From the NCBI RefSeq assembly GCF_008000995.1, contig NZ_CP042828.1:310001-374000 (forward strand): a stretch of 64,000 nt of DNA, given 5' to 3'. Made by a program: the position numbers and the translations under genes. Every line of letters starts with the position of its first letter. Position 1 is the stretch's first letter. Shown one piece after another: positions 56,681 to 64,000 of this stretch. A model generated the notes under the pieces. The model was not told the DNA's origin. It searched no databases and saw nothing but the letters and a program-made list of their open reading frames with translations. The stretch is from Ruania zhangjianzhongii. GTDB taxonomy: Bacteria; Actinomycetota; Actinomycetes; Actinomycetales; Beutenbergiaceae.

Positions 56681-56764
56681 CAGCATTCAGGATCGCCTGC
56701 CGGCCGCCGCCTGTCGATACCAACCACCCCACCGCCTCAGGCTGTGCGTGGGAGACTGAGACCG

Positions 56765-59700
56765 ATGAGCGCGAGCAGGACCTCCGCAACCGGGGCGGAA
56801 CCGGACTCGTTCGCTGACGTACGCGGCCGCTTCCCGGCGGTCGGGGAGCCGCCGCCTTCGGCGAACACGGTGCCACCTCGGGTGACCGGCCTGCACCGTG
56901 AACCGGTCCTGCGGCGTCTGGACCCGGTGGCGCAGGGCCACCTCGGACTGGTTGTCGCCCCGGCCGGTAGCGGTAAGACCACCCTGATGGCGCAGTGGGC
57001 GCGGGCCAGTGGTCTGCCGGTGGCCTGGTGCCGACTGGACTCGACCGCTGTGGCCGGGCGGCTGGTGGACTGGCTGTGGCCCGCGCTGAGCGTGCACCTG
57101 CGCGGCGACGTGGAACGACCGGCGAGCGTCGACGCGCTGGTGCGGGTGTTGCACGAGCGCTCTGGCGAGTTGCTCCTGGTGATCGACGATCTGCATGTCA
57201 TCGCTGAGACGCCAGCGGCCCGGGAGCTGGAGCGGTTCGTCCTGCTCGGCCCCGGAGCCGTGAAGCTTCTCCTCGGCTCGCGCACGATGCCCGCGGTGAA
57301 CTTGACCCGTTCCGAGCTGCCGCCGCTGGTGGTGCTCACCGGTGAGGACCTCCGGTTCCGCACGTGGGAGGTGGAGAAGCTCTTCCGCAACGTCTACCGT
57401 GCCCCACTACCGCCCTACGACGTTGCCGCGCTGACCCGGTACACGCAGGGGTGGGCGGCGGGTCTGCAGCTGTTCCATCTGTCCACAGTGGGGCACCAGG
57501 GCACCGCTCGGCGGCGTGCGGTGGACGCACTTGCCGGCCACTCCCGCTTCGCCCAGCACTACCTGTCCGCGCAGGTGCTCGCCACTCTGCCGGAGGCGAC
57601 CCAGGACTTCCTGGTGCAGACCAGTGTGTTCGACGACCTCACCGCAGCCCGCTGCGACGAGCTGCTGGGGATCACCGGTTCGCAACGCATCCTGCGGGAC
57701 CTGGTGGACCGGCAGGCACTGACCACCACGCTCGACGGCGGGGTGAGCTTTCACTACCACGACGTGCTCCGCCGTCACCTGGAGAGCGTGCTCCGCGAGG
57801 AGCTCGGTGCCCAGGCGACGCACGAGTGGTACCGCCGGGCCGCTGCCGTGCTGGAGGCGGAGCACGCGACGGTGGAGGCCCTGCGTGCCCGCGCCCGCGC
57901 CGAGGACTGGGAGGGTGTGCAGCGACTCCTGCGCGAGCACGGGCACCGGATCATGGCTGGGCCGACCTCGGCACACGGCGCAGGTACCTGGACCACCCTG
58001 CTCCCGGCCTGGCTGACCGAGACCGACCCCTGGTGTGCCCTCGCCGAGGCTCGCCGTCTGCTGAACGACGGGCAGCTGCGCGCCGCGGAGACTGTCGCCC
58101 GCCGAGCGCGGGAGCAGTTCACCGACGATGTCGGTCTGCGGGTCTGTGACCAGGTGATCGCGGATGTCTCCGTCTGGGTGGACACCACCCCACCGCCGCG
58201 GCCCACCTGGGTGCATCTGCTCCGGGCGGCGCTGCGCCGGGACCCGCTCGCTGCGGCGCGCCAGGCCCGCCGTCTCGACGGGCCGGGGGCGCGCCTCACC
58301 GAAGGGCTGGCGCTGTGGGTGGCCGGTAACCGGCGGCAGGCCTGGACGGTGCTGCGCTCGCTGGCCGCGTACGGTGACCCGGACGAACCGGCCCAGCTGG
58401 CCGCCCAGCTCGCTCTCGCCACGATCAGCGGAGTGGGCACCCGCCCGGTGGAGGACACGGTCGCCAACGTCGACGACATCGCGGCCGAAGCGAGCAGGCG
58501 TGGCTGGACCTGGATCGCGCGGATCGCCACCGGGCTGACCCTGGCGGTGGGCCCGCCCCGATCCCGGCAGGCGCTGGCCGAGGTGCTGGCCGAGCACGAG
58601 GCGCGCAGCGACCGGGTCGCCGCGGCGTTCATCTCGATGGCCGGTGCGATCGCCCAGGTGCGCGGGGACAGTGCGCGGGTGAGTGATCTGACCGCGGTGG
58701 CGCTGCGGCTGCGCGAGCTCGACTGCGGTTCGCTGGCGGTCTGGTGCGACGCGATCGCCTCGCTGAAGGCGGCGGCGCACGACCTTCCGGATGCGGAGCA
58801 GATGGCGCGGGCAGCTGAGGGCCAGGCTCGACGGGCGGCGGTGCCGGGGGCCGCCTGCTTCGCCTACTCCGCGCTCGTGCTCGTGGATACCGAGAATAGT
58901 GCGGAGGAGCTGACGCTCGCCCGGTCCACGGCGATCGAGATCGGGCTGGCGATCCGCCCCTGGGAGTGGTTCCCGGCCCACCAGTCCGCGCGCAGCAGGC
59001 CGGCCGAGCGCCCGGCGGCGGGGCTCGCGGCGGCCGAGCGCCCGCCAGCTGCCAGCGCGGCGCCCCCGTCGCCGCCGGAGCACCCACCAGCCCCGAGCAC
59101 AGCCGCAGCCGCCACCACCCCGTCATCCGCCACCCCGGGTGCGGATACCCCGGGTGCGGCCACCCCGTCATCGGCCACCCCGGGTGCGGACACTCCGATG
59201 ACCGACACGCCTCCGGCCGGGATCCCGGCCGCCCCCAGCCCATCATCACCGGGCACCGGCGTTCGGGTGGACCTGCGCTGCTTCGGCGGATTCGAGCTGC
59301 GCGTGCACGGCCGGTCGGTGGACCTGTCCGGGGTCCGGCCGCGGGTGCGGGCCCTGCTGAAGTTCCTCGGCATCCACGCCGGCCACCCCGTGCACCGTGA
59401 GCTGATCACCGATGCGCTCTGGGGCGAGCTGGACGCCGAGGCGGGGATGCGGTCGTTCCAGGTGAGCCTGTCCCAGTTGCGCGCCGTGCTGGAACCGGGC
59501 GTTCCGGGCCGGCGCAGCCGGATCATCCAACGGGTCGGTGAGGCCTACCGGCTCAACCTCTCCCCGGACTCCCGCAGCGATGTGTTCGAGTTCGAGGTCG
59601 CACTGGGCGAGGCGAAGGTTGCGCGCCTGGACCGGGATCAGGATCGGGTGCGGCAGGCGCTCACCCGCGCGCTCGACGCCTACCAGGGGGACCTGTTCTC

Positions 59701-59992
59701 GGAGGAAGGGGCCCCGGCCTGGGTGCTCACCCCACGGGAACGGCTGCGGGCTGGTGCCGCCGAGGCGGCCGCACAGCTGGCCGAGCTGGAGTTCCGCGCC
59801 GAGCGCTGGACTGCCGCGGTCTCCGCCGCCCAGCGCAGCATCGACATCGACCCCTACCGGGACGACGCGTGGCGCGCGCAGGTCGCGGCGTTGCGGCGAG
59901 CCGGTGAGCCCGCCGCCGCGCAGCGGGCGCTGCGCGCTTACCGTGCGGTGCTCGCCGAGCTCGGGGTGGACTCGGAGCTCACCGGCCTCTGA
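56765..59992 (+). CDS. STAND-ATPase/SARP (BTAD) transcriptional regulator
   Basis: Predicted 1075 aa; ATG 56765 is chosen over GTG 56744. MalT-like NTPase domain: Walker A VVAPAGSGKTTLMAQWA (about 65-80), Walker B LLLVIDDLH. A TPR-like middle (about 330-730) leads to a Pro/Ala/Thr/Ser linker with 15-residue repeats. The C-terminal winged-helix OmpR-type DNA-binding domain (CFGGFELRVHG... LWGELDAEAGMRSFQVSLSQLRAVLE) and a BTAD domain follow. This inverted order, STAND domain first and SARP domain last, recurs beside actinobacterial contractile injection loci. Its 3' end overlaps the convergent Zn-ribbon gene by 14 bp. Confidence 0.83.
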   Translation: MSASRTSATGAEPDSFADVRGRFPAVGEPPPSANTVPPRVTGLHREPVLRRLDPVAQGHLGLVVAPAGSGKTTLMAQWARASGLPVAWCRLDSTAVAGRLVDWLWPALSVHLRGDVERPASVDALVRVLHERSGELLLVIDDLHVIAETPAARELERFVLLGPGAVKLLLGSRTMPAVNLTRSELPPLVVLTGEDLRFRTWEVEKLFRNVYRAPLPPYDVAALTRYTQGWAAGLQLFHLSTVGHQGTARRRAVDALAGHSRFAQHYLSAQVLATLPEATQDFLVQTSVFDDLTAARCDELLGITGSQRILRDLVDRQALTTTLDGGVSFHYHDVLRRHLESVLREELGAQATHEWYRRAAAVLEAEHATVEALRARARAEDWEGVQRLLREHGHRIMAGPTSAHGAGTWTTLLPAWLTETDPWCALAEARRLLNDGQLRAAETVARRAREQFTDDVGLRVCDQVIADVSVWVDTTPPPRPTWVHLLRAALRRDPLAAARQARRLDGPGARLTEGLALWVAGNRRQAWTVLRSLAAYGDPDEPAQLAAQLALATISGVGTRPVEDTVANVDDIAAEASRRGWTWIARIATGLTLAVGPPRSRQALAEVLAEHEARSDRVAAAFISMAGAIAQVRGDSARVSDLTAVALRLRELDCGSLAVWCDAIASLKAAAHDLPDAEQMARAAEGQARRAAVPGAACFAYSALVLVDTENSAEELTLARSTAIEIGLAIRPWEWFPAHQSARSRPAERPAAGLAAAERPPAASAAPPSPPEHPPAPSTAAAATTPSSATPGADTPGAATPSSATPGADTPMTDTPPAGIPAAPSPSSPGTGVRVDLRCFGGFELRVHGRSVDLSGVRPRVRALLKFLGIHAGHPVHRELITDALWGELDAEAGMRSFQVSLSQLRAVLEPGVPGRRSRIIQRVGEAYRLNLSPDSRSDVFEFEVALGEAKVARLDRDQDRVRQALTRALDAYQGDLFSEEGAPAWVLTPRERLRAGAAEAAAQLAELEFRAERWTAAVSAAQRSIDIDPYRDDAWRAQVAALRRAGEPAAAQRALRAYRAVLAELGVDSELTGL
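59116..59193 (+). repeat. In-frame 45-bp tandem repeat in the SARP linker
   Basis: Copy starts at 59116 and 59161, period 45 bp (15 residues), encoding TPSSATPGADTPGAA and a near-identical partial copy. It extends a disordered linker between the TPR-like and DNA-binding domains, and its length may vary between strains. Confidence 0.7.
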
Positions 59993-61322
59993 ACTCCACC
60001 TCGGCGACCGCCACATGGACATCGTCGGTCGCGCCGTAGGCGCTCAAGATCGTCATCCGCACCGAGACCACGTCACTGGTCGGTAGGGAGATCGGCTGCG
60101 GTTCGCCGGTGTCCACCACGTCGACATCGTGGATCTGCTCCGCGCCGTCGGCAGTGGTCACGGTCAACCGCACCCGGCTCGGCCGTGCTTCCAGCAGCCG
60201 CGTCTCATCCGCGGTGGACGCTCCGGCGGTGAGCAGCACTGTGACCAGGCGGAACGGTTCGTCGAACTCGAACTGCAACCACTCGCCGGCACCGTCGCCG
60301 GTGGCCTCCGGGGCCCAGGACCGGTCCGAGATGCCGTCGCGCGCCAGGTCCGGGCCGCGGTCGCTCGCCGAGCTGGACGCGGTCACCTCTGCCGGGTTCA
60401 CCGGATCGTTGCCGGCCACCCGGTCCAGCACCGCGTGGTACCCGGTGCCCAGCTCGTCCCGGAAGTAGTAGCCGCCACCACCGAGCAGGGCCAGGACCAC
60501 TAGGAGGACCACCGTCTTCGTGGGGAACCGGCGCCGTCGCCGCCGCTTCGGCCGCGTGCCCGCCTTCGGGCCGTCCCGGCGTGCTCGACGCCGATCGCGC
60601 CAGCGGCGCCACCAGCCTCCGCGGCCCTGAGTGGGCGCATCGGCCAGGCTCGCCCCGCAGCGGCGGCAGAAGTTGCGGTGCGGTGCGTTGCCGGCACCGC
60701 AGGCCCCGCAGATCAGATCGCCGGGGGCGGGCGAAGGTTCGTCCTTCTCGGCCGGGGGGACGTGCCGGCGTGGTCGGGCGGCGGCCGGCTGAACCGGGCC
60801 GGGCACTGCCGCCGCGGGCTTGATCGCTGCCGGCTTCACGGGTTTCACCGACGGCTTCACCGGCCCAACCCCCGCCGGTGTCTCGGCGGTGGCTGCGGCG
60901 GTTGGGGGCGGTGTTCCGGTCGTCGGGGGGTGGTCGACGGCGGTTCTCGCCCGGGTCGCCCGGGTCGCCCGGGTGGCCCGGGTCGGCGGCACACTCTCGA
61001 CGGCGGTGGGCGCCTCAGGGGTGTTTCGCACCTCGGTCGCCGGCTCGCCCGCCTCCTGCACCGCTGCCTGTGGCGCGGGTTCGGCCGCTTGGGCCGCCGC
61101 CGGTCGCGGCGGGGGTTCGGCCCCTTGCTCCACCGCCTGCGGCGCCGGCTCGACCACACGCTCAGGTGCGGGCTCGGCCTGGGTGAGCTCCGCCGTCGTG
61201 CTGGAGCTGGAGCTGGACGCGGCCTCGACCCCGTGCTCCTCCCACTCCAGGTAGGTGCCGCAGGCACCACAGAACAGTTCACCGTCCTCGTTCCGGACGC
61301 CGCAGTCCGGGCAGGTCTGCAT
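59979..61322 (-). CDS. Zn-ribbon, TM and galactose-binding-like protein of the injection locus (CisA-like)
   Basis: Predicted 447 aa. First zinc ribbon Cys4/7/18/21, a long disordered Ala/Pro/Thr/Glu linker (TRATRATRATRA repeat near 115-126), a second zinc ribbon Cys205/208/219/222, a polybasic stretch (236-266), one TM helix (about 269-287), then a beta-sandwich of discoidin/galactose-binding type (about 310-447: WAPEATGDGAGEWLQFEFDEPFRLVTV). The positive-inside rule places the N-terminus in the cytosol and the sandwich outside. The layout fits the membrane protein CisA that tethers Streptomyces contractile injection particles. It is the last gene of the tail operon, overlapping the tail-I gene stop by one base. 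Confidence 0.72.
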   Translation of the reverse strand: MQTCPDCGVRNEDGELFCGACGTYLEWEEHGVEAASSSSSSTTAELTQAEPAPERVVEPAPQAVEQGAEPPPRPAAAQAAEPAPQAAVQEAGEPATEVRNTPEAPTAVESVPPTRATRATRATRARTAVDHPPTTGTPPPTAAATAETPAGVGPVKPSVKPVKPAAIKPAAAVPGPVQPAAARPRRHVPPAEKDEPSPAPGDLICGACGAGNAPHRNFCRRCGASLADAPTQGRGGWWRRWRDRRRARRDGPKAGTRPKRRRRRRFPTKTVVLLVVLALLGGGGYYFRDELGTGYHAVLDRVAGNDPVNPAEVTASSSASDRGPDLARDGISDRSWAPEATGDGAGEWLQFEFDEPFRLVTVLLTAGASTADETRLLEARPSRVRLTVTTADGAEQIHDVDVVDTGEPQPISLPTSDVVSVRMTILSAYGATDDVHVAVAEVEFRGR

Positions 61323-61864
61323 CAGTCGTTCACCACCCTGATCCGGTGGGTCACATGTGCCGGCTTCACCGCGGTCACCACAGCGTCCAACCGGGCTTCG
61401 TCCACGCTCGTCCCGGGCCTCGGGCGCACCCGCACGGTCACTCGCGGCCGGGCCCGGCCCGGCAGGGCACCGCCGGGCTCCGCCGACCAGGCGTCTCCGC
61501 CGTTATCGGTCACCTCGACCTCGCCGTCGACGATGAGCCGCACTGCCCCGGCGATCCCGGCCGTCGTACCCCGCCGGGCATGCACCGCCACCGCACCGGC
61601 CACGATCTCCCGGCGCTGGGCCACCGTCCACGCCTCATCCACCTCGATACCCACCCACTGTGCGAGCCAGTCGAGAAAGTCCGTTGGCGCGAGCTGAGGG
61701 TCCACATAGGCGCCCAACCCGTCCAGGCTGAGGAAGAGCGGCGCCAACGCTTCGTCGAAGGCACCCAGGAACCTGCCCAGGAATTCGTCCTCCTGGAGCA
61801 CACCCGGTAACCGGTGCGCCACCGGGAACGGGCTCGGCTGCCCGGCGATCACGCCTCGCATCAT
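61322..61864 (-). CDS. Phage-tail-protein-I-like baseplate component
   Basis: Predicted 180 aa of the phage-tail TIGR02242/gpI type: LPGVLQEDEFLGRFLGAFDEALAPLFLSLDGLGAYVDPQLAPTDFLDWLAQWVG (quoted as motifs LPGVLQ, LGAYVDPQLAP and FLDWLAQWVGIEVDE). A C-terminal beta part follows (THRIRVVND end). It would close the baseplate wedge. Its ATG overlaps the J-gene stop by 4 nt. Confidence 0.8.
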   Translation of the reverse strand: MMRGVIAGQPSPFPVAHRLPGVLQEDEFLGRFLGAFDEALAPLFLSLDGLGAYVDPQLAPTDFLDWLAQWVGIEVDEAWTVAQRREIVAGAVAVHARRGTTAGIAGAVRLIVDGEVEVTDNGGDAWSAEPGGALPGRARPRVTVRVRPRPGTSVDEARLDAVVTAVKPAHVTHRIRVVND

Positions 61865-63807
61865 CGGCCCCCACTCGCGCGCACCTGGTGCTGGTAGGAG
61901 AACACCAGCCCGCTCGCATCCAGATCGATCCGGGTGGTCGGCTCGCCGCGTTTGCCGGTGATCGGGTCGGCGCCGAACAGCTTCACGTCCTCGATCAGCT
62001 CCAGACCGGTCAGTTGCTGCAGCACGGCATAGACCTCACCGGCCTGCACCGGCCGGCCGAACGGCCACCCGGCGTGATCCGGCCCGCCAGTGATCGGGTC
62101 GAAGTAGGCGTTCAGCGCCTCCAGTGCCTGCCGTTCCAGCCGCTCCGCATTCGCGCGCGGGCGGGCCGCGATCCGGGCCACCACGGTCACTCCTTGGTAG
62201 AACGGTGGCTCCACCAGCAGCCGGGCACCCACCGGGCGGCGCTCGCCCAAGTAGTCGGTGATCCGCTGCAGCGCCCGCTCCGAGGGCAGCAGGTCCTCCA
62301 GCCGCAGCCGGCCCTGGGCATCCGGCACCGCCGCCGGCACTACCAGCAGTCGCACCCCGCCAGCGTCCTCAGCGGACTCGGCCACCACGCACCGGACCCG
62401 GGCGATCCCGGGCGCCGCCCGGCGGGCGAGCACCTCGTAGTCCTCGGCGGTGACCGCCCGATCCAGTGTGCGCAGCGAGATCGGCCCACGCACCATTGCC
62501 TGCTGCACCGTCTCCGGGGCGCGCCCGCCCAGACCGGCCCGTCGGTTCACCACCCGGTCCACCAACGGCACCAGGTCGCGCATCACCGTCACCGCCCGCG
62601 GTGCCACGTTTCCCGCCGGGCCACCGCCGGTGCGGTAGGAGCGCACCCGCAGGGGCGCGCCCTTGGCCGGGACGGCGCCGTAGTGACGCAGCGTGCCGTC
62701 GGCCTCTCGTACCGCCGGCGGCAGGATGAGCTGCCCGATGGCCCGGTCCAGCCGGAACACCGTGGACTCCGGCAGGCTGCCGGCGAACGTCTCCACCTCC
62801 GCCCACTCCTGCCAGCCGTCACCGGCGGCCACCTCCAGCACCACCCCGCCGCCGGCGGTCACCGGGGCGTGCGCCAGCGTGAACACCTGCCCCGGGATGC
62901 CCTCGGAGAGGCCGAGCACCTCCTCGGTCACCGTGCGGGCGTGCCCGGCGGGCACTGTGCCGCCCATGGTCACCGCGCTGGCCGCACTGATCGTGGGGGA
63001 GACGCTGTAGAACGGGAACCCGGGGTCCGGCTCGATCACCCGGCAGCGCAACCAACCGGCCCGCTCGCCGCCGATCACCGAGGTCTCATGCTCGGCCGGC
63101 ACGTGCAGCAGCACGTCCCCGGACCGGTTCAGCCCACCGGTGCCGTCATGGTCCACCTCACAACTGCGCCAGCCACCCTCGCACCACGCCTCCCAGCGCA
63201 GTGGGGGGAACCGTGGGTCCACGCCCTTGCCCTCCACCTGGGCATCCACGTGCACCGAGACGATGCAGCCCGGTGCGGCATCGTCCAGCCCCACCAGGAG
63301 GACGTCTCCGGGGACCGGTGGGCTGGTGAACACCGAGAACCGGTCGCCATCGCGGAGCTCGCTGCTGCGGTTGGTGGGCTCGCCGTCGTTCGGTTGGGTG
63401 GCGGTGTGCAGGAGCTCACGTGGCGGCACCACCAGATCCCGGAGCGTGGCAAAGACCACCGGGTCCTCATCCTCCTGCCGCGGTGTGCACGCCTGCGAGG
63501 CGGCAGGTACCCGCACGTCCTCGGTCTGCGGGGCGGACAGCCAGTAGGTCAGGTCCACCGTGGCGGCAGCCGGCGGGTGCAACTGCACCCCGATCAGGTC
63601 GAGGAAGGTGAGGTAGAGCCGGTCCGGTACCCGGTTCAGCCGGTAGGACAGCTCGTCCACCATGTGCGCGAACGTCTCCACCAAGGTCACCCCCGGGTCG
63701 GAGACGTTGTGGTCGCTCCATTCCGGGCAGGACACCTGGATGTAGCGCTTGGCGTCATCCACCAGGTCCTGGAAGCGCCGGTCGTCGAGGTCGGGGGCGG
63801 GCAGCAT
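61861..63807 (-). CDS. Baseplate J-like protein of a contractile injection system
   Basis: Predicted 648 aa. Starts LPAPDLDDRRFQDLVDDAKRY and FAHMVDELSYRLNRVPDRLYL, then a Baseplate_J core (RTLDRAVTAEDYEVLARRAAPGIARVRCV) and a C-terminal wedge domain (GRPVQAGEVYAVLQQLTGLELIEDVKLF). It matches large Afp11/Pvc11-type J proteins of eCIS rather than small P2 gpJ. Overlaps the tail-I gene by 4 nt and lies 2 nt after the gp25 stop. Confidence 0.85.
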   Translation of the reverse strand: MLPAPDLDDRRFQDLVDDAKRYIQVSCPEWSDHNVSDPGVTLVETFAHMVDELSYRLNRVPDRLYLTFLDLIGVQLHPPAAATVDLTYWLSAPQTEDVRVPAASQACTPRQEDEDPVVFATLRDLVVPPRELLHTATQPNDGEPTNRSSELRDGDRFSVFTSPPVPGDVLLVGLDDAAPGCIVSVHVDAQVEGKGVDPRFPPLRWEAWCEGGWRSCEVDHDGTGGLNRSGDVLLHVPAEHETSVIGGERAGWLRCRVIEPDPGFPFYSVSPTISAASAVTMGGTVPAGHARTVTEEVLGLSEGIPGQVFTLAHAPVTAGGGVVLEVAAGDGWQEWAEVETFAGSLPESTVFRLDRAIGQLILPPAVREADGTLRHYGAVPAKGAPLRVRSYRTGGGPAGNVAPRAVTVMRDLVPLVDRVVNRRAGLGGRAPETVQQAMVRGPISLRTLDRAVTAEDYEVLARRAAPGIARVRCVVAESAEDAGGVRLLVVPAAVPDAQGRLRLEDLLPSERALQRITDYLGERRPVGARLLVEPPFYQGVTVVARIAARPRANAERLERQALEALNAYFDPITGGPDHAGWPFGRPVQAGEVYAVLQQLTGLELIEDVKLFGADPITGKRGEPTTRIDLDASGLVFSYQHQVRASGGR

Positions 63808-63809
63808 CG

Positions 63810-64000
63810 TCAGGCGCCTTCCTCATGGTCGGGGATCACGTAGAACGGGAAGACGAGGTTGCGCGGGTCGTTGGTGCCGCGCACCGCGTAGGCGATGTCG
63901 ATGTAGAGCAGACCGGAGTCCACCTCGTCGAAGCGCACGGTGACTGACGCGAGCTCGATCCGTGGCTCCCAGCGCTCCAGGGCCACCCGTACCGCGTAGG
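63810..64000 (-). CDS. gp25/GPW-type baseplate wedge protein, 5' end beyond the window
   Basis: Only the last 63 residues are present: AVRVALERWEPRIELASVTV, then LLYIDIAYAVRG and VFPFYVIPDHEEGA-stop. This is the T4 gp25/GPW lysozyme-like baseplate family. The start and the remaining upstream tail genes (sheath, tube, spike, AAA ATPase) must lie to the right. Confidence 0.8.
   Translation of the reverse strand, partial: YAVRVALERWEPRIELASVTVRFDEVDSGLLYIDIAYAVRGTNDPRNLVFPFYVIPDHEEGA

What the first reader, a model, noticed from the sequence alone, without database searches (positions are those of the whole stretch)
59979..64000. Window opens onto a contractile injection system (eCIS) locus
gp25-, J- and tail-I-type genes run head-to-tail with 1-4 nt overlaps and no capsid, portal or terminase gene in view. 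They are followed by a zinc-ribbon membrane protein instead of a tail fibre or holin. That matches actinobacterial extracellular/cytoplasmic contractile injection loci rather than a prophage. The locus is truncated by the window end.
Basis: partly seen in the sequence, partly recalled or inferred. Interest (0 to 1): 0.85.

Follow-up and report, generated by a model that had tools for sequence, protein, structure and literature searches.

The report
Complete Streptomyces-type cytoplasmic injection system
This is the end of a complete set of genes for a microscopic, phage-tail-like syringe of the kind that Streptomyces uses from inside its own cells, found here in another actinobacterium, and comparing it with its relatives points to an overlooked gene that may set the syringe's length.

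Summary
Beyond the window the gp25, J and tail-I genes continue into a full class IId contractile injection system: sheath, two tubes, LysM tube protein, VgrG, PAAR, AAA+ ATPase, Pvc16-type cap and an eCIS_core protein. The genome has one sheath and no portal match. J, tail-I and Cis1b match chains of PDB entry 9gtp, which I take to be the S. coelicolor baseplate. The "zinc-ribbon membrane protein" is CisA, which S. coelicolor needs for firing; it follows cis12 in 57 of 59 relatives. A divergent operon holds PAAR and a Sco4256-type effector. So the finding is a new member of a known kind.

The novel part: 54 of 58 loci hold, between a tail-assembly-chaperone-like pair and Cis1b, a long ORF; 52 could be scored (560-1357 aa, Pro/Ala/Gly/Ser/Thr-rich, conserved C-terminus). 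That is the phage tape-measure position. Three papers say Streptomyces lacks a typical tape-measure gene. I propose this protein as the missing ruler (about 0.4). Length tests were inconclusive, and published empty-lumen data count against it.

The parts
63810..64000 (-). cis9 (gp25-like baseplate wedge), C-terminal part; the gene runs on to base 64217 in extended numbering
   Evidence: GPW_gp25 E 8e-9 for the fragment, 1.2e-27 for the whole protein
61861..63807 (-). cis11 (baseplate J, 648 aa)
   Evidence: Baseplate_J 4.5e-13; PDB 9gtp chain 1K E 2e-234 over residues 2-646; in an alignment used to find 80 named relatives
61322..61864 (-). cis12 (tail-I-type wedge, 180 aa)
   Evidence: Tail_P2_I 1e-17; PDB 9gtp chain E, E 2e-37
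59979..61322 (-). cisA homologue (447 aa): N-terminal zinc ribbon, low-complexity linker, second zinc ribbon, poly-Arg, one TM helix, C-terminal F5/8-type C-like domain
   Evidence: Pfam; next gene after cis12 in 57 of 59 loci; first zinc-ribbon motif in 63 of 63, second in 62 of 63, hydrophobic segment above 1.6 in 59 of 63 complete homologues; CTD profile matches F5/8C structures, best 7ji1 E 6.8e-13
56744..59992 (+). BTAD (SARP-like) regulator with AAA-type N-terminal part, 1082 aa, convergent with cisA and overlapping it by 14 nt; candidate cluster regulator (inferred)
   Evidence: BTAD 1.1e-15, Trans_reg_C 2.8e-6; convergent homologue within 1.5 kb of cisA in 20 of 49 loci that reach far enough

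Best explanation
The region is the downstream end of a complete chromosomal class IId contractile injection cluster of the Streptomyces CISSc/SLP type. Shown by sequence: the full set of structural genes, no portal gene, a CisA homologue in place of a tail fibre, and a Sco4256-type effector gene beside PAAR. Inferred from the S. coelicolor work: the particle assembles in the cytoplasm, loads the effector into its tube, and is recruited to the inner face of the cell membrane by the zinc-ribbon cytosolic part of CisA. CisA's outer F5/8C-like domain faces outside. Firing delivers effectors into the cell's own envelope and leads to regulated death or stress responses. Further inference: the 1121-aa disordered protein in the tape-measure position, with its chaperone-like neighbours, sets tail length.
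For: Structural set. Match to chains of PDB 9gtp (J 12 chains, tail-I 6, Cis1b 6; this fits the published 2:1 Cis11:Cis12 wedge): and PMC12237407 section 6. CisA; PMC12237407 section 7. Effector: the first 254 aa of the 460-aa protein are 37% identical (E 2e-52) to two tandem genes upstream of the sheath in S. coelicoflavus; homologues occur in 12 of 14 sheath-positive (4 of the 12 weak and partial, E 1e-17 to 1e-20) and 0 of 10 sheath-negative genomes of the family. No portal match, single sheath. Shared neighbours in named relatives: (table partly cut).
Against: No expression, particle or localisation data exist for this organism in anything I saw. The host family appears to include Occultella (NCBI Ruaniaceae, Micrococcales), not a group I know as filamentous, so the cell-death role shown in Streptomyces may not carry over. 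The CTD match is to a general sugar-binding or adhesive fold, not to a tested function.
Confidence: 0.88

Rival explanations
1. A released eCIS of the AFP/PVC kind that acts on other cells, with CisA serving as a membrane-anchored or cell-surface receptor-binding fibre.
For: Same structural core; Vladimirov et al. (PMC10020575 section 11) proposed the Sco4242 product as a fibre, and found it in all three of their particle purifications (section 6).
Against: No tail-fibre gene recognised in the cluster; the CisA homologue has a TM helix preceded by basic residues. In S. coelicolor sheath and tube proteins stay in the cell (PMC10066040 section 6) and CisA is not in the cryoEM particle (PMC12237407 section 6).
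Confidence: 0.07
2. A defective prophage tail or R-type tailocin.
For: The parts are phage-tail-like.
Against: Pvc16_N cap, AAA+ ATPase, eCIS_core and CIS_tube/LysM proteins; no portal match in the genome; the same neighbours recur in relatives from many genera.
Confidence: 0.02
3. For the 1121-aa slot protein: a tube-lumen cargo or effector scaffold, not a length ruler (a relative in kind of Tme of S. davawensis).
For: In the 5 Chloroflexota and Deinococcus slot proteins scanned (of 13), eCIS_core lies about 165-200 aa before the C-terminus. Tme lies upstream of the baseplate genes, is about 70% disordered and is an effector (PMC11126660 section 10 and passages).
Against: The G000 slot protein has no Pfam or PHROG match, and eCIS_core was the only domain in the 5 scanned. 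An effector would not be expected so regularly beside a tail assembly chaperone.
Confidence: 0.35
4. For the slot protein: a cytoplasmic assembly or condensate factor that never enters the particle.
For: Not named among the proteins detected in purified particles in the text of PMC10020575 section 6; effector-deletion particles look mostly empty (PMC10066040 section 11).
Against: Its C-terminus is conserved like an anchor and lies just upstream of the tube initiator gene wherever the profile hits at iE below 1e-3. The mass-spectrometry argument is weak, because BW3 was also missed yet (as Cis12) is in the cryoEM model.
Confidence: 0.2

Closest known systems
CISSc / SLP of Streptomyces coelicolor and S. 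lividans (class IId; PMC10066040, PMC10020575, PMC12237407, PMC10286715)
   Same: J, tail-I and Cis1b match PDB 9gtp with E 2e-234 to 8.5e-45. Same order from sheath to CisA as in the Streptomyces loci visible, such as S. scabiei L118. In S. coelicoflavus, which stands in for S. coelicolor, also LuxR (51%), AAA (45%), eCIS_core (40%) and the Sco4256-type effector genes (37%) upstream of the sheath
   Different: PAAR present (absent in S. coelicolor, present in S. venezuelae per PMC10066040) and placed with the effector on the opposite strand; convergent BTAD regulator beside cisA (20 of 49 loci); different host group; a DUF11/PD40 protein upstream of the cap gene that has no significant match in the S. 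coelicoflavus stretch L178
Roseiflexus / Calidithermus / Deinococcus cytoplasmic CIS (PMC12998442)
   Same: Class IId core and a slot protein with a similar C-terminal motif (Roseiflexus-like and Deinococcus loci; Calidithermus not reached)
   Different: Slot protein carries eCIS_core in the 5 scanned; gene order rearranged in Deinococcus; [quoted passage not shown]
Phage tape measure proteins / Afp14
   Same: Large, fast-diverging protein encoded right after a tail assembly chaperone-like gene and next to the tube-initiator/hub genes
   Different: Not helical or coiled-coil in composition: about 65% P+A+G+S+T on average in 52 sequences; no match to any PHROG or Pfam family for the G000 protein. 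Not compared directly with Afp14
Tme of S. davawensis and Sle1 of S. lividans (PMC11126660, PMC13277306)
   Same: Large proteins linked to tape measures and to DUF4157 in actinobacterial CIS loci
   Different: Those are effectors with C-terminal functional domains; no such domain was found in the G000 slot protein, and Sle1 lies upstream of the sheath, not between DUF6760 and Cis1b

Membership tests
eCIS/CIS (non-phage contractile injection system) | AAA+ ATPase and Pvc16_N (PF14065) cap in the same cluster (the distinction given in a passage of the PMC10020575 introduction) | tested here: met
   AAA 1.6e-22; PF14065 1.8e-38 at G000:C2:388138-388638
eCIS/CIS (non-phage contractile injection system) | Sheath, two tube types, LysM/CIS_tube, VgrG, gp25, J, tail-I | tested here: met
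eCIS/CIS (non-phage contractile injection system) | No head genes | tested here: met
   No Phage_portal match in the genome (positive in 4 of 14 control genomes). Only portal was tested genome-wide; terminase and capsid models were not.
Class IId cytoplasmic CIS | Sequence kinship with CISSc | tested here: met
   no tree of sheath proteins was built
Class IId cytoplasmic CIS | Particles kept free in the cytoplasm | not testable with these tools
   needs imaging of the organism
CisA | Gene just downstream of cis12; cytosolic N-terminus, one TM, conserved C-terminal domain | tested here: met
   topology is inferred from basic residues before the TM
CisA | Required for firing | not testable with these tools
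   shown only in S. coelicolor (PMC12237407)
Prophage / tailocin | Portal and other head genes or phage-type cluster | tested here: not met
Tape measure protein (slot protein) | Gene follows tail assembly chaperone and precedes hub genes | tested here: met
   149-aa neighbour matches phrog_508 tail assembly chaperone in 19 of 19 scanned; adjacent to DUF6760 in 47 of 47. In 4 family loci of the distant type the order differs.
Tape measure protein (slot protein) | Length tracks tail length | tested here: inconclusive
   Rank order agrees in 3 clades with proxy species, but 0.17-0.22 nm per residue is not one constant (papers); length is not more conserved than the CisA linker over all 24 pairs (p 0.42-0.44)
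Tape measure protein (slot protein) | Mostly alpha-helical / coiled coil | tested here: not met
   judged from composition only; structure prediction unavailable
Tape measure protein (slot protein) | Resides in the tube lumen | not testable with these tools
   published lumen looks mostly empty without Sco4256-4258 (PMC10066040 section 11)

The most novel reading that the evidence does not exclude
Class IId contractile injection systems do have a tape measure: an intrinsically disordered, Pro/Ala-rich protein of about 560-2000 residues. In the actinobacterial clusters it is anchored at the tube initiator by a conserved C-terminal helix and handled by a tail assembly chaperone-like protein plus DUF6760. 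By gene count, the S. coelicolor versions would be SCO4249, SCO4251 and SCO4250. In the Chloroflexota and Deinococcus versions scanned, the same protein also carries eCIS_core, so ruler and cargo adaptor are one chain; in Actinobacteria they have split. A disordered polypeptide as ruler would differ from the coiled-coil tape measures of phages.
Probability: 0.4. Interest if true: 0.72.

Novelty: new member of a known kind. Interest (0 to 1): 0.48.

Why it matters
The cluster places the full CISSc-type machine, CisA and a Sco4256-type effector in an actinobacterium whose family appears to include Occultella; J relatives occur in Georgenia, Arthrobacter, Cellulomonas, Leifsonia and Agromyces. 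This makes it possible to ask what a self-directed injection system does outside filamentous development. The comparison also supplies one concrete candidate gene for an open point of the field: why S. coelicolor class IId particles have uniform length although a tape-measure gene is reported absent.

Tried and rejected
(1) Prophage or tailocin: rejected. (2) Missing cap: my first gene calling missed it, because its frame overlaps the AAA gene; a family search found it. (3) Length proportional to particle size: looked tidy at first (0.198 and 0.199 nm per residue, using 268 nm and 365 nm), but the in-situ S. coelicolor length is 233 nm and Roseiflexus gives 0.22, so I call it inconclusive. (4) Compensated indels as a sign of a ruler: large gap counts with small net length change in some of 12 chosen pairs looked striking, but against the CisA linker in 24 disjoint pairs there was no difference (Wilcoxon p 0.42 and 0.44). 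Of the two measures on the 18 closer pairs one gave p 0.64 and the other p 0.043, which I do not count. (5) tblastn of the chaperone-like protein against phage genomes found nothing; only profiles link it to phage chaperones. (6) A profile of that protein found no solved structure below E 0.69. (7) The REase-like gene between the AAA and eCIS_core genes as a cargo: no tblastn match in the other seven type-A loci of the family, so probably incidental. (8) No genome among the 41 could be taken for S. coelicolor (next best J identity 86%), so S. coelicoflavus stands in. (9) R. castenholzii, C. chliarophilus and D. aquatilis genomes were not reached; a Roseiflexus-like genome and other Deinococcus species were used, and C. 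chliarophilus has no proxy.
Full report
Observation. The minus strand from 64000 down to 59979 encodes the end of gp25, then J, tail-I and a 447-aa zinc-ribbon membrane protein, tightly packed. Junctions are a 2-nt gap, a 4-nt overlap and a 1-nt overlap. A BTAD-type regulator (56744-59992, plus strand) converges on the zinc-ribbon gene and overlaps it by 14 nt.

Extension. The window is G000:C2:310001-374000. Regions to 408000 were read. In extended window numbering (L002 position + 58000), all minus strand: gp25 63810-64217; VgrG 64228-66045 (Phage_base_V 1e-23); CIS_tube/LysM 66032-66811 (5.6e-23); Cis1b tube 66823-67260 (1.7e-28); a 1121-aa low-complexity protein 67264-70629 (no Pfam family); DUF6760 70629-70787 (5.9e-15); a 149-aa protein 70784-71233; Cis1a tube 71233-71682 (1e-21); sheath 71716-73260 (3.6e-26); eCIS_core protein 73490-74461 or up to 74581 (1.3e-33); REase-like 74593-75507 (7e-6, below cut-off); AAA+ 75697-77937 (1.6e-22); Pvc16_N cap about 77934-78650 (1.8e-38); a DUF11/PD40/CARDB protein 78652-82488; LuxR 82628-83254. 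Plus strand: a 460-aa protein 83439-84821 and PAAR 84827-85141 (6e-14), then a DctPQM TRAP transporter. The genome has one sheath and no portal match.

Kinship. J, tail-I and Cis1b match chains of PDB entry 9gtp with E 2e-234, 2e-37 and 8.5e-45. The search output gives no entry title; the chain numbers (12 J, 6 tail-I) fit the published S. coelicolor wedge of two Cis11 and one Cis12 (PMC12237407, section 6), and I take it to be that structure. In the window's family, 14 of 24 genomes held, its own included, have a sheath match. They fall in two types: 72-88% sheath identity with similar gene content for seven other genomes (eCIS_core lies elsewhere in two of them, G007 and G022), and 35-45% for the remaining six (tblastn). 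Three of seven congeners have the distant type and none the near type, so this genome's cluster is unlike that of its congeners. Many of these loci are cut by contig ends.

CisA. Of 59 loci with a cis12 match and at least 1.2 kb downstream, 57 have the CisA homologue next. Of 63 complete homologues (from 87 loci examined; incomplete ones dropped), 63 have an N-terminal C-x2-C...C-x2-C motif, 62 a second one before the TM, and 59 a hydrophobic segment above 1.6. The C-terminal domain profile matches F5/8-type C structures, best 7ji1 at 6.8e-13. PMC12237407 (abstract, sections 6 and 7, passages; whole-text word search for 'zinc': 0) calls the N-terminal region largely unstructured. PMC10020575 (section 11) had noted a Cys-rich domain just before the TM as possibly Zn-binding, which is the second one here. 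The invariant first ribbon therefore looks like an added detail; a library search for CIS + Streptomyces + 'zinc ribbon' found 0 papers.

Effector. The first 254 aa of the 460-aa protein are 37% identical (E 2e-52 and 1e-51) to two tandem genes between the AAA gene and the sheath of S. coelicoflavus. I take these for the counterparts of Sco4257/4258; PMC10066040 (section 11) describes Sco4256-4258 as toxic to E. coli, single-TM and needed for lumen filling. The protein has one TM at about residue 225. In the family, 12 of 24 genomes match, all 12 being sheath-positive; 0 of 10 sheath-negative genomes match. Four of the 12, the distant-type loci, are weak and partial (E 1e-17 to 1e-20).

The slot protein. 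Of 58 loci with both DUF6760 and Cis1b (47 named, 11 of the family), 54 have a long ORF in the interval. The 4 others are the distant type, with Cis1b directly after DUF6760; in 3 of these 4 an 812-894 aa ORF with 56-57% P+A+G+S+T follows Cis1b, and the fourth (G013) is unclear. The ORF picked for 2 of the 54 (L085, L093) does not end in the motif, and both were dropped from the composition and profile sets. In the remaining 52: 560-1357 aa, mean 65% P+A+G+S+T against 38-42% for six other proteins of the G000 cluster. A profile of the last 45 aa was built from those 52, so its match to them is circular. In six-frame translations of all loci it found 26 further hits (iE below 1e-3), all 26 within about 300 nt upstream of Cis1b, and none elsewhere. 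In 12 chosen pairs the C-terminal 45 aa are 64-98% identical while the middle is 36-74%. In 13 Chloroflexota and Deinococcus loci the slot ORF (614-1973 aa; in D. grandis it is continuous with Cis1b) ends in a similar motif by eye; the profile gives only weak hits there, at the slot C-terminus in 4 of 13 (E 0.08-1.5), and in the short ORF before Cis1b in 4. All 5 of these slot proteins that were scanned contain eCIS_core near the C-terminus.

Why a tape measure. In phages (recalled) the order is tube, tail assembly chaperone, tape measure, hub. Here the 149-aa protein before DUF6760 matches phrog_508 'tail assembly chaperone' in 19 of 19 scanned homologues, best 2e-6, this genome's 5.8e-4 (the 19 were my selection), and stands next to DUF6760 in 47 of 47 loci. 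PMC10066040 (section 6; 'a typical tape measure protein'), PMC12237407 (section 6) and PMC10286715 (passage) state that such a gene is absent from the Streptomyces clusters. By counting the seven genes between sco4245 (gp25) and sco4253 (sheath), the slot gene would be SCO4249 and the chaperone-like gene SCO4251; this is inferred, not looked up. PMC10020575 reports the sco4251 product in at least one particle preparation. Searches for CIS + 'tape measure' + Streptomyces (10 papers listed), CIS + 'tail assembly chaperone' (9 listed), CIS + 'tape measure' + 'disordered' (11 listed) and SCO4249/SCO4250/DUF6760 and two SLIV tags (1 paper, passage unrelated to CIS) showed no earlier proposal of this in titles, abstract starts or the passages read. 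Most of the listed papers were not opened.

Against it. Particles of the effector triple mutant look WT-like but with mostly empty lumens (about 85%, n = 73; PMC10066040 section 11), so a lumen-filling ruler is not visible, though one thin disordered chain might not be. The text of PMC10020575 section 6 does not list the slot protein among detected proteins, though BW3 was missed too. Supplementary tables could not be read. Length test: published extended lengths are 217 nm (R. castenholzii; Roseiflexus-like cells of the mat 251), 238 (C. chliarophilus) and 365 (D. aquatilis) (PMC12998442, passages and section 23), and for S. coelicolor 233 in situ (passage of section 5) and 268 in the model (section 6) in PMC12237407, and 295 by stain in PMC10020575 section 6. 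With proxy species (974 aa Roseiflexus-like, 1354 aa S. coelicoflavus, 1831 aa D. psychrotolerans) the rank agrees but the ratio runs 0.22, 0.17, 0.20 nm per residue; other members of the same groups differ (872 aa in a genome of the same genus as the Roseiflexus-like one, 1506-1973 aa in other Deinococcus), so the proxies carry wide error. Length is not conserved better than the CisA linker over 24 pairs. I therefore hold the ruler at about 0.4.

Verdict. The finding is a correct reading of a known kind of system; the ruler candidate is the part worth a bench test.

Noticed in passing
L002:16593-17507 (-), extended window 74593-75507: REase_MTES_1575-like gene (E 7e-6, below cut-off) between the AAA and eCIS_core genes; no match in the other seven near-type loci of the family. 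G002 carries other ORFs in the same interval, so it looks like a variable slot.
   Followed up: partly
G000 against G015, G017, G020: This genome's sheath is 88% identical to one in another genus, while its sheath-bearing congeners have a different CIS type at 46-48%: exchange or differential loss of clusters within the genus.
   Followed up: no
L003:652-4488 (-), extended window 78652-82488: 1278-aa DUF11/PD40/CARDB repeat protein directly upstream of the cap gene, with weaker homologues (28-38%) at the same place in near relatives.
   Followed up: no
L165, L167, L168, L169 and Deinococcus L125, L130, L131: The N-terminal domain of the effector-type 460-aa protein also matches inside large ORFs of Chloroflexota and Deinococcus CIS loci; several begin with a kinase-like sequence (by eye) or, in Deinococcus taeanensis, are annotated as a Ser/Thr kinase.
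   Followed up: no
L165:7022-7225 (+) and equivalents in L167, L168, L172 and Deinococcus loci: In these loci a short ORF before Cis1b carries a motif like the C-terminus of the slot protein, in the place where others have DUF6760.
   Followed up: partly
L125:3219-6998 (-), Deinococcus grandis plasmid: Cis1b and the slot protein form one continuous reading frame in this record; real fusion or assembly error is not known.
   Followed up: no
window 56744-59992 (+): BTAD regulator convergent with cisA in 20 of 49 loci that reach far enough; possibly a cluster-specific regulator different from the SlpR gene of Streptomyces (not compared).
   Followed up: partly
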